The position numbers and the translations under genes are program-made. The notes under the pieces were generated by a model, which was not told the origin of the DNA, made no database searches, and saw only the letters and a program-made list of their open reading frames with translations. A stretch of 64,000 bases of DNA from contig JAFQQI010000066.1 in the NCBI GenBank assembly GCA_017411305.1, positions 62,001 to 126,000 on the forward strand, written 5' to 3'. Shown piece by piece: positions 5,551 to 36,636 of this stretch; the stretch's first letter is position 1, and every line of letters begins with the position of its first letter. This stretch comes from Lachnospiraceae bacterium (GTDB taxonomy: Bacteria > Bacillota > Clostridia > Lachnospirales > Lachnospiraceae).

Positions 5551-5901
5551 CTTAATTACCTGACCTTTCTTTTGTTTTTGAAAATGACAAAGAATTGTCT
5601 ATTTTATGTTAGGCTGGAATAAAAAAGCCCTAAGTATAAATTAATATACTTAGGGCGAATATAACCGCGGTTCCACCTAAATTCAGATAACCATCTGCGC
5701 TTTTATCATAGTACGGATTTAACATCTTATACTACATTCCTTTTAACGGTGGAATTTTCCGTCGGACGCTACTTTATTATTCACTCCGCTGCTCCAAGAC
5801 GCCTTCCATGTTTTCCTCATAAGGGTTCGCACCAAACACCCTCTCTCTGAAATCAGATTAACACGTACTATTTCTCTTCTTCGCATTTTCATTTTAATTT
5901 A
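5551..5901 (-). promoter_or_regulatory. T-box riboswitch (glycine) upstream of glyS
   Basis: Reading the minus strand, the T-box core AGGTGGAACCGCGG lies at 5678-5665. The stem I features AGAGAGG and GGTGCGAACC precede it. A 12-bp terminator stem follows (5656-5645 with 5638-5627), then a T-run (5626-5621). The likely specifier triplet is GGC (5803-5801) in GAAGGC, a glycine codon that matches the downstream gene. The specifier position is inferred by eye. Confidence 0.93.
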
Positions 5902-27389: not shown

Positions 27390-29162
27390 TCAAGCTTGCT
27401 CATTTTTGTCCGATAAAAGCTTCACAAATTCCTCTACCGGCATCTCACCCAAATCCTGTTTATCTCTTTCACCATCGCGGCTTCTGACAGATATTTTTCT
27501 GCTATTCTGCTCCTTTTCTCCTAATATAATCATATAAGGTACTTTGTCAAGCTGTGCTTCCCGGATTTTGTATCCCAGCTTTTCATCCCGGATATCCAAT
27601 TCCACACGGATTCCTTTTTCTTTCAGCCAAGCTTCCACTTCTTCTGCATAAGAAACATATTTATCGGAAACGGGCAATATCTTTACCTGAACCGGCGCAA
27701 GCCATACGGGAAATTTTCCGGCATAATGCTCAATCAGAATACCGATAAACCGTTCAATGGAACCGAATACCACACGATGTATCATAATAGGACGATGGGC
27801 TTCTCCGTCAGAACCGATATATTCTATGTTAAATCGCTGCGGCAACTGGAAATCAAGCTGAATCGTTCCGCACTGCCACGTTCTGCCAATAGAATCCTTC
27901 AAATGGAAATCCAGCTTCGGTCCATAAAAAGCACCGTCACCTTCATTGATTTTATAGGATACGCCGATGGCATCCATGGCACTTGAGAGCGCATTTGTAG
28001 CCATTTCCCAGTCTTCATCGCTACCGATGCTTTTCTCCGGTCTTGTGGACAGCTCTACCTCATAATCAAATCCGAATCTTGCGTAAACTTCATCAATCAG
28101 CTTTGCCACGTTTTGGATTTCACTGATGATTTGATCCTCCGTCATAAAAATGTGGGCATCGTCCTGCGTTAATGCACGCACACGCATGAGGCCATGAAGC
28201 GTTCCCGACTTTTCATTACGGTGTACTAATCCCAGCTCCGCCATTCTCATAGGCAGCTCCTTATAGGACCTGGGCTGTAAATTATAAACCAACATTCCAC
28301 CGGGACAGCTCATGGGCTTAATGGCAAATTCTGCCTCATCAATTTCCGTCGTGTACATATTTTCCCGATAATAGTCCCAATGCCCGGACGTCTCCCAAAG
28401 ACTTTTATCCAGCATAATCGGCGTAGAAATCTCCATGTAGCCTTCTCTTTGATGGATTTTTCTCCAATAATCAATCAGAAGATTTTTCAGTATCATTCCT
28501 TTGGGCAAAAATACCGGAAAGCCGGGACCCTGTTCAAAAATTGTGAACAATCCTAACTCTTTTCCTAACTTCCTGTGGTCTCGCATTTTTGCCTCTTCTA
28601 TCATGTTCAGGTATTCTTCCAACTGTGATGCCTTAGGGAAAGAAATACCATAGATTCTTGTAAGCATTTTGTTCTTTTCATTGCCTCTCCAATACGCTCC
28701 TGCCACCGATAATAACTTAATTGCCTTGATATAGCTCGTATTTGAAATGTGAGGACCTACACAAAATTCCTTATAATCACCCTGCTGATAAAATGTGATC
28801 ACTTCTCCTTGAGAAAGTTCTTTTATCATTTCCGCTTTGTAGGGTTCCTTATGCTCTTCCATAAAAACTGCTGCCTTATCTTTTGAAACCTCATAAACCT
28901 GAAGAGATAAGGATTCTTTTACAATTCTTTTCATCTCCTCTTCCACGCAGCTTAAATGCTCTTCGGAAAAAGGAAAAGAAAATTCAAAATCATAATAAAA
29001 TCCGTTTTCGATAGCGGGCCCAATTGCACATTTTGTATCCGGGTACAAATTTTTCACTGCTTGTGCAAGTACATGGGCACTCGTATGCCAAAACGCCTCT
29101 TTTCCCTCTCTGCTGTCAAAATTAATTTCCTGCAATTCTCCGTTTCTTAATAAAACCTTCAT
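27390..29162 (-). CDS. thrS: Threonyl-tRNA synthetase lacking the TGS domain
   Basis: 590 residues; usual bacterial ThrRS is about 640. The N-terminal TGS domain (about 60 residues) is missing, so the protein starts nearly at the editing domain. Editing zinc-site motifs are present: HTSAH near residue 28 and CVGPH near 133-137. The class II core has MRMAELGLVHRNEKSGTLHG (motif 2) and GSIERFIGILIEH (motif 3). The C-terminal anticodon-binding domain has PVQVKILPVSD. The start is supported by AAAGGAG. It may be the cell's only ThrRS or an inducible second copy; the threonine T-box suggests expression on threonine limitation. Confidence 0.95.
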   Translation of the reverse strand: MKVLLRNGELQEINFDSREGKEAFWHTSAHVLAQAVKNLYPDTKCAIGPAIENGFYYDFEFSFPFSEEHLSCVEEEMKRIVKESLSLQVYEVSKDKAAVFMEEHKEPYKAEMIKELSQGEVITFYQQGDYKEFCVGPHISNTSYIKAIKLLSVAGAYWRGNEKNKMLTRIYGISFPKASQLEEYLNMIEEAKMRDHRKLGKELGLFTIFEQGPGFPVFLPKGMILKNLLIDYWRKIHQREGYMEISTPIMLDKSLWETSGHWDYYRENMYTTEIDEAEFAIKPMSCPGGMLVYNLQPRSYKELPMRMAELGLVHRNEKSGTLHGLMRVRALTQDDAHIFMTEDQIISEIQNVAKLIDEVYARFGFDYEVELSTRPEKSIGSDEDWEMATNALSSAMDAIGVSYKINEGDGAFYGPKLDFHLKDSIGRTWQCGTIQLDFQLPQRFNIEYIGSDGEAHRPIMIHRVVFGSIERFIGILIEHYAGKFPVWLAPVQVKILPVSDKYVSYAEEVEAWLKEKGIRVELDIRDEKLGYKIREAQLDKVPYMIILGEKEQNSRKISVRSRDGERDKQDLGEMPVEEFVKLLSDKNEQA

Positions 29163-29474
29163 TTCTCATGTCTCCTTTCGACTATTAAATTAATAAGTAT
29201 CGAATAACATAAGAAAAGCACCCATAAGACTACTATACAGTAATCCTAAGGGTGCATTTTGCACGGTTCCACCTTAACTTTTCACTTCAGATTCCAACAA
29301 ATCCTATCCCTTAACGCGGGCTTACGGTAATACTTAATAACTTATGTTTTAGGTATTACAGCTCGGGAATGGTTTTCGTCTGTCGTCCTCATAAATGACT
29401 TCCACCAATTGTCATTCTCTCTGGATGATTCGGGGCAAACTACTCTTTCCGTCATTGCTTTTCTCATGTTATTT
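29163..29474 (-). promoter_or_regulatory. T-box riboswitch (threonine) upstream of thrS
   Basis: Minus strand: T-box core AGGTGGAACCGTGC at 29274-29261. The stem I motifs AGAGAG and GGTGGAAG precede it, with a likely specifier ACC (29373-29371), a threonine codon followed by A. The terminator stem GCACCC.../...GGGTGC spans 29255-29218 and ends in TTTTC. Confidence 0.93.
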
Positions 29475-29509: not shown

Positions 29510-29532
29510 TTGCTATATTATTATTCTTTTTA

Positions 29533-29561
29533 TTGCTTATTTCGACAAAAGTTGATATGAT
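29533..29561 (+). promoter_or_regulatory. Probable promoter of the 28-residue peptide mRNA
   Basis: TTGCTT (29533-29538) and TATGAT (29556-29561) with 17 bp between. A hairpin ATAGAAAAA/TTTTTCTAT near 29571-29591 would lie close to the 5' end of the mRNA, as in long-lived toxin mRNAs. Confidence 0.5.
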
Positions 29562-29677
29562 GTAACAATCATAGAAAAATGATTTTTCTATTTCTTATTT
29601 TCAATAGTTTTATTCCCATTCTAAAGATAACCTCTAAATAATTTTCCAAAACTATTTAGAATCGTGATTACGGTTAC

Positions 29678-29708
29678 CGTCTCCTACACCGGCAACAGGA
29701 AGGAGGTG
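29678..29708 (+). promoter_or_regulatory. Hairpin masking the toxin ribosome site
   Basis: CTCCT (29681-29685) pairs with AGGAG (29701-29705) of the Shine-Dalgarno sequence; flanking bases extend the stem to 8 bp including two G-U pairs. Confidence 0.5.
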
Positions 29709-29714
29709 CTAATT

Positions 29715-29801
29715 GTGCAACTTATTTTTTCATTTACTCTTTCTATCATGGCAAGTGTAATTGCTTATTACATATGCAAATGGTTCGATAAGAAAGATTA
29801 A
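29715..29801 (+). CDS. 28-residue membrane peptide, putative type I toxin
   Basis: GTG start at 29715 with a very strong site (GGAAGGAGGTG) 6-8 nt upstream. The peptide has one hydrophobic segment of about 20 residues, then a charged tail CKWFDKKD, the layout of Fst/Ldr-type and other type I toxins, which insert in the cytoplasmic membrane. The ribosome site can be masked by an upstream CTCCT. The locus ends in a bidirectional terminator. A convergent promoter would make an RNA complementary to the start codon. I cannot name the family with certainty; toxicity is inference from architecture. Confidence 0.65.
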   Translation: MQLIFSFTLSIMASVIAYYICKWFDKKD

Positions 29802-29845
29802 CGGTAATGAACCTGATGGTTTAGTCTGCCATCTAAAATAATTGT

Positions 29846-29921
29846 ACAAGAAAACCCACGAGCGGCAACTCGTGGGTTTTCGATTTGTGTATAACTGTGC
29901 AACTTATATTACTTTCCATCT
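29846..29921 (-). ncRNA. Predicted convergent antitoxin RNA
   Basis: A promoter at 29956-29928 on the minus strand would start an RNA near 29921. It runs over the second direct repeat (complementary to the toxin start codon) and ends at the shared terminator near 29848, about 75 nt in all. Its ends are inferred from promoter and terminator positions. Confidence 0.6.
29850..29881. terminator. Bidirectional terminator shared by toxin mRNA and antisense RNA
   Basis: A perfect 13-bp stem GAAAACCCACGAG/CTCGTGGGTTTTC with a 6-nt loop; T-rich arms on each strand. Confidence 0.85.
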
Positions 29922-29927
29922 GATTGC

Positions 29928-29956
29928 ATTGTAACATAACAACACTTTATTTACAA
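29928..29956 (-). promoter_or_regulatory. Promoter of the predicted antitoxin RNA
   Basis: TTGTAA (29956-29951) and TACAAT (29933-29928) on the minus strand with a 17-bp spacer; stronger than the toxin promoter, as expected for an antitoxin. Confidence 0.65.
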
Positions 29957-34996: not shown

Positions 34997-36208
34997 ATGA
35001 GTAAAATCGTATTTTTTTGTATCCCCGCACACGGACATACCAACCCTACCTTAAATGTGGTTAGAGAATTAACAGACAGAGGACATCAGGTTTGGTATTA
35101 TTCCTATGAATCTTTTCGTGAAAAAATTGAAAGCACCGGTGCACGCTTTATTCCCTGTGACGCTTATGATATGGAACAGCGCCTTTCACCCGAGGATGGA
35201 GCAAGAATAGGAAAAGACCTTGCTTTCTCTACTAAAATACTGGTAGATACCACATTGGCTCTGGACGATGCGATTTTAGAAGATATGAAAAAAATACAGC
35301 CCGATTGTATTGTGGCAGATTCCATGGCAGTTTGGGGCAAAGCAATTGCAATGAAACTTAACATACCCTTTGTTTCCTCTACTACCACCTTTGCCTTCAA
35401 TCAGTATTCCTCAAAAATAATGAAGCAAAGCATCGGTCAGCTGTTTAACATGATTATCTCCATGCCTAAAATTAGTAAAGACTTAAAGCGGTTGCAGGCA
35501 AAAGGTTATCCGATTACAAATATTCTGGACATTATCCAGAATGATAATCTGACTCATACCGTTGTATATACCTCTAAGGAATTCCAACCCTGCGCGGATA
35601 CCTTTTCCGAAAAATATTCCTTCGTGGGTCCTTCTATCAGAGAAACCGAAAAGCTTGTAAAAAAGAATGCAGATAAACTGATTTATATTTCCCTGGGAAC
35701 CGTAAATAACATGATGACCGATTTTTACAAAAATTGTATTGCTGCCCTGAAGGACACAGAATATCAGGTGATTATGTCAGTAGGTGAATATATCGATATT
35801 AAGAGTCTCGGTGAAATACCCGAAAACTTTAAGATTTTACCATCCGTAGACCAGATTGCCGTGCTAAAAGCGGCGGATGCTTTTCTAACCCACTGCGGAA
35901 TGAATAGTGTAAATGAAGGCCTTTATCATGAAGTACCACTGGTGCTTTTCCCTCAAACCCCTGAGCAGGGAGGCGTAGCAAGAAGAGTATCCGACTTAGA
36001 AGCCGGCATTTATTTAAATAAAAATACCCCGGAAGAAATTAAAGCTTCTTTGGAAACCGTTTTGAATGATTCCAAATATAAAGAGAATGCTTCTTCCATA
36101 TCCGAAAGCTTCAAAAGATGCGGCGGTGCTGTCAAAGCAGCAGACAAAATTCTTAATGTAGCCCGTAAGCAACCAAGCATTAATTTTGAAAGGATCCGTA
36201 TATGTTAA
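34997..36208 (+). CDS. Macrolide-type glycosyltransferase (GT1, MGT family)
   Basis: 403 residues from the ATG at 34997; a GTG at 34988 is only 2 nt from the AAAGG and less likely. GT-B fold: KIVFFCIPAHGHTNPTLN at the N-terminus with the catalytic-type His, and the nucleotide-sugar site in the C-terminal half (YISLGTVNN, HCGMNSVNEGLYHEVPLVLFPQ with the GT1 H-C-G motif). Members such as OleD/MGT glycosylate and inactivate macrolides or other small hydroxylated compounds using UDP-sugars. It heads a three-gene set with a regulator and a membrane protein. Substrate unknown. Confidence 0.88.
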   Translation: MSKIVFFCIPAHGHTNPTLNVVRELTDRGHQVWYYSYESFREKIESTGARFIPCDAYDMEQRLSPEDGARIGKDLAFSTKILVDTTLALDDAILEDMKKIQPDCIVADSMAVWGKAIAMKLNIPFVSSTTTFAFNQYSSKIMKQSIGQLFNMIISMPKISKDLKRLQAKGYPITNILDIIQNDNLTHTVVYTSKEFQPCADTFSEKYSFVGPSIRETEKLVKKNADKLIYISLGTVNNMMTDFYKNCIAALKDTEYQVIMSVGEYIDIKSLGEIPENFKILPSVDQIAVLKAADAFLTHCGMNSVNEGLYHEVPLVLFPQTPEQGGVARRVSDLEAGIYLNKNTPEEIKASLETVLNDSKYKENASSISESFKRCGGAVKAADKILNVARKQPSINFERIRIC

Positions 36209-36636
36209 ATGAAAACTTGTTAAACCTTCGTAAAATCAATAAATTTTCCCAAGAATATGTAGCAGAACAAATCGGTGTTTCCAGACAGGCCGTTGCAAAA
36301 TGGGAAACCGGAGAAACTACACCTGACATCTCTAATTGTAAGGCACTTGCCGATTTGTATGACGTTTCCTTAGACGACCTTGTAAATTATACTCCGGATA
36401 CTATGGGTCTTGGTGTCCCACCAAAGGGGAAGCATATTTTTGGTGTTGTTAAAGTAGGAGAAAAGGGACAGATTGTCATTCCCAAAAAAGCCCGTGATGT
36501 TTTTAAGATTAAACCCGGGGACGGACTGGTGATTTTGGGCGATGAAGAGCAGGGGATGGCAGTCATCAAAGCATCCGCCATGGTGAATATGATGAACAAT
36601 ATCAGAAGTTTTATGGATAAAACTATCGAGGAATAA
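36202..36636 (+). CDS. XRE helix-turn-helix / SpoVT-AbrB fusion regulator
   Basis: 144 residues, overlapping the glycosyltransferase by 7 nt with GAAAGGA upstream. Residues 1-60 are an XRE-type helix-turn-helix (NKFSQEYVAEQIGVSRQAVAKWETGE). Residues 80-125 are a swapped-hairpin AbrB domain (VKVGEKGQIVIPKKARDVFKIKPGD). Two DNA-binding domains in one small chain may recognise a composite operator. It probably controls the glycosyltransferase operon and itself. Confidence 0.9.
   Translation: MLNENLLNLRKINKFSQEYVAEQIGVSRQAVAKWETGETTPDISNCKALADLYDVSLDDLVNYTPDTMGLGVPPKGKHIFGVVKVGEKGQIVIPKKARDVFKIKPGDGLVILGDEEQGMAVIKASAMVNMMNNIRSFMDKTIEE

What the first reader, a model, noticed from the sequence alone, without database searches (positions are those of the whole stretch)
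29533..29956. Fst/par-like type I toxin-antitoxin locus with start-codon-targeting antisense RNA
A 28-residue single-span peptide with a KWFDKKD tail has a very strong but maskable ribosome site (CTCCT opposite AGGAG). It ends at a bidirectional terminator. From the other side, a 17-bp-spaced promoter would make an RNA of about 75 nt ending at the same terminator. A 12-bp direct repeat, TGTGCAACTTAT, spans the toxin start codon and recurs in the convergent RNA's template, making that RNA exactly complementary to the start codon. This reproduces the logic of Enterococcus par with an apparently different peptide.
Basis: partly seen in the sequence, partly recalled or inferred. Interest (0 to 1): 0.75.

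Follow-up and report, generated by a model that had tools for sequence, protein, structure and literature searches.

The report
Antisense-controlled toxin peptide gene pair
A gut bacterium carries a tiny gene for a membrane peptide next to a short opposing RNA whose sequence should block that gene's start signal; it looks like a new member of a known kind of toxin-antitoxin pair that is widespread but often left out of annotations.

Summary
Window 29657-29956 has the anatomy of a par/Fst-type type I toxin-antitoxin locus: a 28-residue single-span peptide with a strong, maskable ribosome site, a convergent RNA of about 76 nt, a shared terminator, and a 12-nt direct repeat over the start codon (two exact copies; 0.02 expected). 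The main evidence is comparative. In 120 non-redundant loci (the window and 119 relatives) the repeat differs between loci but matches within a locus: 107 of 120 in the top 5% of non-cognate pairings, controls 4 and 3 of 120. The RNA resembles pneumococcal F66 (Rfam RF02442, E 6e-8, below cut-off), which by my coordinate inference is an annotated Fst-family locus. The peptide is below all curated cut-offs but profile-related to Fst (95%). Verdict: new member of a known kind, in a widespread clade without annotation in the plasmid rows seen. Transcription and toxicity are untested.

The parts
29657..29662 (+). probable -10 of the toxin promoter (TAGAAT); mRNA start expected near 29669-29673
   Evidence: stands in the -10 column of 119 aligned leaders; family median 46 nt from -10 to start codon, 52 nt here; -35 is poor
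29673..29680 (+). mRNA 5'-end element GTTACCGT that can pair with 29801-29808
   Evidence: covariation in relatives; RF02442 match also begins at 29673
29681..29685 (+). CTCCT, can mask the SD (AGGAG 29701-29705)
   Evidence: predicted fold
29700..29708 (+). Shine-Dalgarno AAGGAGGTG
   Evidence: sequence
29715..29801 (+). toxin-like peptide ORF, GTG start, 28 residues, one hydrophobic span and charged KWFDKKD tail
   Evidence: family profile
29710..29725 (+). direct repeat block a, toxin copy, spans the start codon
29892..29907 (+). direct repeat block a, antisense-template copy
29739..29747 (+). direct repeat block b, toxin copy
   Evidence: duplex, coordinates read from the sequence
29912..29920 (+). 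direct repeat block b, antisense-template copy (one mismatch)
   Evidence: duplex, coordinates read from the sequence
29801..29808 (+). ACGGTAAT at the stop codon, partner of the mRNA 5' end
   Evidence: strict pairing 5 of 6, sixth is G-U
29850..29881 (.). shared bidirectional terminator
   Evidence: folds
29846..29921 (-). predicted antisense RNA, about 76 nt
   Evidence: promoter, fold; conserved layout
29928..29956 (-). antisense promoter TTGTAA-17-TACAAT with TG
   Evidence: score 9.5

Best explanation
A par/Fst-type type I toxin-antitoxin locus. An mRNA of about 215 nt encodes a 28-residue membrane peptide. Its leader can hide the ribosome site and its 5' end pairs with the stop-codon region. 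A convergent RNA of about 76 nt shares the terminator; its 5' half pairs with the start codon and first codons through two repeat blocks, and the complementary terminator stem-loops give a second contact. While the antisense RNA is present the peptide is not translated; when it falls, the peptide is made and acts on the cell membrane. Shown here: anatomy, conservation and covariation of the pairing elements, remote similarity of the peptide to Fst. Inferred: transcription of both RNAs, translational block, toxicity, any difference in RNA stability.
For: Repeat pair: own score mean 12.6 against 6.4 non-cognate, 107 of 120 in the top 5%, controls 4 and 3 of 120. Own antisense is the best binder of all 120 in 103 of 120 loci; window -27.9 kcal/mol against mean -13.4, best -25.6 for 119 others. 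Antisense promoter scoring 9.5 or more in 107 of 120 against 6.2% of shuffles. mRNA 5' end and stop region covary, 55 of 117 against 1.3%. Annotated Fst loci show the same layout: repeat score 13 or more in 6 of 8. Peptide profile related to Fst, hhalign 95%. RNA resembles F66, Northern-confirmed in pneumococcus (PMC3395615, passages). Relatives beside rep or mob genes on plasmids.
Against: No expression or toxicity data for this locus. Weak toxin promoter in the window. Peptide below every curated cut-off and a profile search of solved structures did not retrieve Fst. 13 of 120 loci are not in the top 5% for the repeat, and 2 of 8 Fst loci also fail as scored. SD masking shows no cognate signal and only a modest one by SD type. 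RNAalifold gave no consensus fold of the leader.
Confidence: 0.87

Rival explanations
1. The antisense RNA does control a small membrane peptide, but this chromosomal copy is not an addiction toxin: it is a membrane or stress regulator, or a domesticated copy with mild effect.
For: Chromosomal, no mobile functions in nine neighbours scanned, single copy found in an 83%-complete genome. Weaver 2020 calls the functions of chromosomal Fst loci obscure (PMC7472228, section read).
Against: Same family lies on plasmids and viral contigs and is patchy in the genus, 8 of 37, as addiction modules are. Does not conflict with the antisense mechanism itself.
Confidence: 0.25
2. It is a member of the C. 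difficile-type type I toxins rather than of par/Fst.
For: 50 of 71 family members touch NF047374 (best E 1.4e-4), more than touch the NCBIfam Fst model (9 of 71, best E 5.4e-4).
Against: Window 17.7 bits against a cut-off of 60. C. difficile toxins are 34 to 59 residues (PMC6563280, section read). Start-codon direct repeats as here are the par feature. No direct profile comparison with C. difficile toxins was made.
Confidence: 0.1
3. Chance: a short ORF, a terminator and a 12-nt repeat that happen to fall together.
For: Short ORFs and promoter-like sites are common in this stretch.
Against: The repeat pair is expected 0.02 times; family profile hit 61 bits, E 2.6e-16 (partly circular, the window peptide is one of 71 rows); conserved layout in relatives.
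Confidence: 0.01

Closest known systems
par of Enterococcus plasmid pAD1 (RNA I/RNA II, Fst) and homologues
   Same: Convergent promoters, shared terminator, direct repeats over the start codon, masked SD, sequestered 5' end, tryptophan between a membrane span and a charged tail (PMC7472228, sections read; annotated Fst loci)
   Different: SxxxS in place of the PxxxG of the fetched Fst peptides; peptide under the NCBIfam Fst cut-off; RNA does not match RefB11 (12.9 bits, E 3.7) while 7 of 7 Fst loci do (5 of 7 over its cut-off)
Pneumococcal RNA F66/srn502 (Rfam RF02442 SpF66)
   Same: Full-length match from the 5' end to the terminator, E 6.4e-8; its consensus contains an ORF ending CKWLDGKE that scores 32 bits on the window's family profile
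   Different: 38.1 bits, below the gathering score of 42; listed in Rfam as an sRNA; 32% identity between the peptides over 28 residues
C. difficile type I modules (e.g. CD0977.1-RCd11)
   Same: Small hydrophobic peptide with charged tail and convergent antisense RNA (PMC7699646, section and passages)
   Different: Longer peptides; sequence score far below the NF047374 cut-off

Membership tests
Fst/Ldr superfamily, par-type loci | Tryptophan between a hydrophobic span and a charged C-terminus | tested here: met
   W23 in ...YYICKWFDKKD; signature as in PMC7472228
Fst/Ldr superfamily, par-type loci | P/D/S/TxxxG(C) motif (present in the majority, not all) | tested here: inconclusive
   Window has SxxxS; family has S at W-13 in 58 of 70 and G at W-9 in 28 of 70, S in 35 of 70
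Fst/Ldr superfamily, par-type loci | Convergent promoters and bidirectional terminator | tested here: met
   as sequence only, and the toxin promoter is weak
Fst/Ldr superfamily, par-type loci | Direct repeats making the antisense RNA complementary to the translation start | tested here: met
Fst/Ldr superfamily, par-type loci | 5' stem-loop masking the SD | tested here: inconclusive
   CUCCU:AGGAG present and folds; cognate test negative, modest by SD type
Fst/Ldr superfamily, par-type loci | Helix sequestering the extreme 5' end | tested here: met
   Pairs with the stop-codon region; 55 of 117 against 1.3%, window 5 of 6 plus G-U. Whether this is par's 'upstream helix' was not shown
Fst/Ldr superfamily, par-type loci | U-turn YUNR in the terminator loop (not in all homologues) | tested here: not met
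   Loop CGGCAA, antisense UUGCCG, read; PMC7472228 says not all homologues have it
Fst/Ldr superfamily, par-type loci | Curated model cut-offs (a naming threshold, not a biological feature) | tested here: not met
   Window: no NF033608 or PF13955 hit. Members: 9 of 71 touch NF033608, 1 of 71 PF13955, 4 of 71 Ldr_toxin. F66 consensus peptide also fails, 18.9 of 26 bits
Fst/Ldr superfamily, par-type loci | Toxicity relieved by the antisense RNA | not testable with these tools
   Needs expression
Rfam RF02442 SpF66_sRNA | Gathering score 42 bits | tested here: not met
   38.1 bits, E 6.4e-8; relatives L159 and L167 pass, 2 of 12 tested
NF047374 C. difficile type I toxin | Curated cut-off 60 bits | tested here: not met
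   17.7 bits

The most novel reading that the evidence does not exclude
The locus belongs to a large clade of par-type systems (peptides ending CKWLD/CKWFD), common in Lachnospirales and riding enterococcal and streptococcal plasmids, that has mostly gone unannotated. Its mRNA is locked by a covarying helix between the extreme 5' end and the stop codon, so that ribosomes at the stop codon or 3' trimming would open the leader; the same lock may be the 'upstream helix' of classical par. Rfam's SpF66 'sRNA' would be the mRNA of this toxin clade.
Probability: 0.5. Interest if true: 0.55.

Novelty: new member of a known kind. Interest (0 to 1): 0.42.

Why it matters
It ties a class of tiny genes in gut Clostridia, and on 257 plasmid records that the window peptide finds at E up to 1, to a specific, testable antisense mechanism. 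It suggests that an RNA family listed as an sRNA (SpF66) is a toxin mRNA. The covarying 5'-end/stop-codon helix is a concrete hypothesis for how such mRNAs stay silent.

Tried and rejected
An automatic scan chose a third site, 29613-29642.

Start codon paired with the stretch before the terminator (prominent in the window's own folds): not conserved, 0 of 119 in the top 5%; dropped as a general mechanism.

SD masking by the cognate test: no signal, 3 of 120. By SD type the own-type helix is longer (4.41, 4.17, 4.83 against 3.79, 3.94, 3.86), but shuffled loops score nearly as well (mean 4.2 against 4.5; 5 or more in 34% against 57 of 117).

RNAalifold on 119 leaders: no fold. The count of antisense bases following deviations (614 of 645) is conditional on blocks picked for identity and is not used as evidence.

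No relevant hit: PADLOC, solved structures (did not retrieve Fst), Rfam at gathering score (two T-boxes only), phage records (six weak hits). The NCBIfam Fst model over 98 relatives: 54 with a match at E up to 1, 0 over cut-off, 9 of 14 control genomes also ring, so mostly noise; but its best hit (24.1 of 26 bits, G070:C33) is a member of this family. Pfam over 71 members gave weak hits to several families, among them DUF2158 (26), a phage holin (21), Ldr_toxin (4) and Fst_toxin (1).

Literature: peptide-string search found no relevant paper. Fozo 2010 and Weaver 2009, the surveys most likely to have met this clade, were not read; I know them only as cited. So I do not claim that the clade is unpublished.

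Full report
OBSERVATION. A GTG-started 28-codon ORF (29715-29801) follows a strong SD (29700-29708). A 13-pair hairpin lies at 29850-29881. Facing it on the minus strand is TTGTAA-17-TACAAT with TG, 29956-29928; promoter-like sites are frequent here (9 found, 2.6 expected), so this alone is weak. TGTGCAACTTAT occurs twice in 64 kb, over the start codon (29714-29725) and beyond the terminator (29896-29907); 0.02 expected, 0 of 100 shuffles with two. An RNA from the minus promoter is therefore complementary to the start codon. Its predicted duplex with the start region has -27.9 kcal/mol, against a mean of -13.4 and a best of -25.6 for the antisense RNAs of 119 other loci. The longer duplex in that call has a second block (29739-29747 / 29912-29920), the two-block layout described for par.

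RELATIVES. One copy was found in the 2.9-Mb genome, which is 83% complete. tblastn with the single peptide over 98 relatives matched 44 at E up to 1, many of them noise; of 31 loci fetched I kept L003-L019 by eye and dropped L020-L031. A profile (A2) of 71 of the 110 distinct peptides finds the family in 8 of 37 genomes of the genus and in 83 of 392 genomes sampled from the order at E up to 1e-4, up to seven copies in one. Viral contigs gave 35 loci. Plasmids gave 257 records at E up to 1, 201 of them Enterococcus; no gene was annotated under the match in the 30 and 60 rows displayed, but that gene table is incomplete.

CONSERVED MECHANISM. The loci: the window's own and 17, and 115 in all. 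L010 and loci cut too short were dropped (127 left), then identical cores (121 left). Twelve plasmid loci were added and the set thinned to 120, the window included. Best ungapped match between the start region and the 90 nt beyond the terminator: mean 12.6 for a locus with itself, 6.4 with other loci; 107 of 120 in the top 5%, 88 above every non-cognate score. Controls: mid-ORF against the same region 4 of 120; start region against 100-190 nt beyond the terminator 3 of 120. By duplex energy 103 of 120 bind their own antisense best of all 120. An antisense promoter scoring 9.5 or more is found in 107 of 120, against 6.2% of shuffles, its -10 at a median of 42 nt from the terminator; a toxin promoter in 83 of 119, against 5.3%. 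The repeat sequence changes from locus to locus and the match is kept.

POSITIVE CONTROL. Of eight annotated Fst loci fetched from plasmids, six score 13 or more for the repeat; L219 (7) and L222 (5) fail as scored. L219 was left out of the Fst alignment A3, seven peptides.

TOXIN mRNA. In the alignment of 119 leaders (about a quarter of the rows printed) the window's TAGAAT 29657-29662 stands in the TATAAT column. The mRNA probably starts near 29669-29673, not near 29568; the RF02442 match begins at 29673 too. The extreme 5' element (GTTACC here; GTTGTC, GTTGCC, GCTGTC and others elsewhere) is perfectly complementary to an element at the stop codon in 55 of 117 loci; with loci carrying a different element the rate is 1.3% (150 of 11,592). 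At 5 of 6 or better it is 93 of 117 against 32%. The window is 5 of 6 in strict pairs with a G-U sixth; with two more bases, GUUACCGU 29673-29680 pairs with ACGGUAAU 29801-29808. An earlier, looser version of this test gave a weaker signal, 21 of 120 in the top 5%. Fst loci show stretches of 8 to 11 nt in four of eight and 5 to 7 in the others, without a control. This may be par's 'upstream helix'; the passages I read say that it sequesters the extreme 5' end and do not name its partner. The leader's CUCCU can mask AGGAG, with only modest comparative support. The pairing of the start codon with the pre-terminator stretch seen in the window's fold is not conserved.

WHAT IT IS CALLED. The window peptide meets no curated model: NF047374 at 17.7 of 60 bits, PHROG 738 of unknown function at E 2.9e-5. 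Weaver's signature, W between span and charged tail, is met (PMC7472228, sections read). hhalign with the Fst alignment gives 95% and E 3.9e-8 for this single comparison. Members score a mean of 6.9 bits on the Fst HMM against a shuffled 99th percentile of 3.6 and maximum of 9.0; in the other direction four of seven Fst peptides exceed the shuffled 99th percentile of 4.0. The window itself scores 5.0. So the relation is probable, not proven. The RNA matches RF02442 SpF66 end to end, 38.1 bits, E 6.4e-8, below the gathering score of 42; of 12 relatives tested seven match at E up to 0.5 and two pass. The SpF66 consensus contains an ORF, MSLILELVLTIIADVIAGIILYFVCKWLDGKE, with a DxxxG motif, one of the motif classes Weaver lists; it scores 32 bits on A2 and 15 on the Fst profile, a bridge between them.

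F66 AND PRINT. F66 was found by sequencing and confirmed by Northern, 239 nt; insertions in it were scored as lost in nasopharyngeal colonisation (PMC3395615, passages). PMC12323649 (passages) says that its neighbour F67 (M18) is annotated as an Fst-family type I module. PMC6212727 (passages) lists Fst-family antitoxins at D39V 1973172-1973570 (not detected there, annotated by similarity) and 1973509-1973913, citing Fozo 2010. Shifting D39 coordinates by 456, the offset of one sRNA that I take to be shared, puts F66 inside the first span and F67 inside the second. That step is my inference. If right, the pneumococcal relative is already filed under Fst.

CONTEXT. In 17 thrS loci of the genus the match to the window ends at 29513 or earlier, and none carries the adjoining Cthe_2159-like protein within the up to 1.5 kb of flank fetched; some are cut by contig ends. 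thrS and its T-box are conserved, what lies beyond is not. Nine neighbouring proteins show no mobile-element function. On small plasmids relatives lie near rep or mob genes, which fits plasmid addiction.

VERDICT. New member of a known kind. The antisense block of the start codon is well supported by comparison; expression and toxicity are untested. The added value is the breadth of the clade and the covarying link between mRNA 5' end and stop codon.

Noticed in passing
window 29633-29660: A 28-nt imperfect palindrome TCTAAATAATTTTCCAAAACTATTTAGA overlaps the probable toxin -10; other upstream arms (29597-29611, 29618-29625) can pair with the same right arm. Exact in no relative among 223 loci, only in copies of the window itself. 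Candidate operator or switch, unexplained.
   Followed up: partly
window 29245-29464 and 5648-5890, minus strand: Two T-box leaders; the first precedes thrS (27390-29162). The genome has a second ThrS, 44% identical, on C61.
   Followed up: no
L167 (Enterococcus faecium plasmid) and other enterococcal plasmid records: A relative with the same repeat layout lies between small plasmid genes, no gene annotated there; 201 Enterococcus plasmid records match at E up to 1.
   Followed up: partly
Rfam RF02442 (SpF66): A family listed as sRNA whose consensus carries an intact 32-codon ORF of this peptide clade.
   Followed up: partly
G344:C40, G302:C7, G269:C71, G382:C18, G226:C100, G240:C104: Copies of the peptide lie about 300-500 nt apart in tandem (positions), as F66 and F67 do.
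   Followed up: no
L006 1741-2089: tmRNA gene about 130 nt from a copy of the locus, a common integration place for mobile elements (recalled).
   Followed up: no
terminator loops of the family: The loop centre is conserved (G then C in 71 and 65 of 81 even-length hairpins) while stems differ; possibly the first contact between the two RNAs.
   Followed up: no
L008 around 1501: A copy without a recognisable start codon or SD, with terminator and a weak repeat; probably decaying.
   Followed up: no
window 36202-36636: Protein with a helix-turn-helix and a MazE-like domain, next to a DUF998 membrane protein.
   Followed up: no
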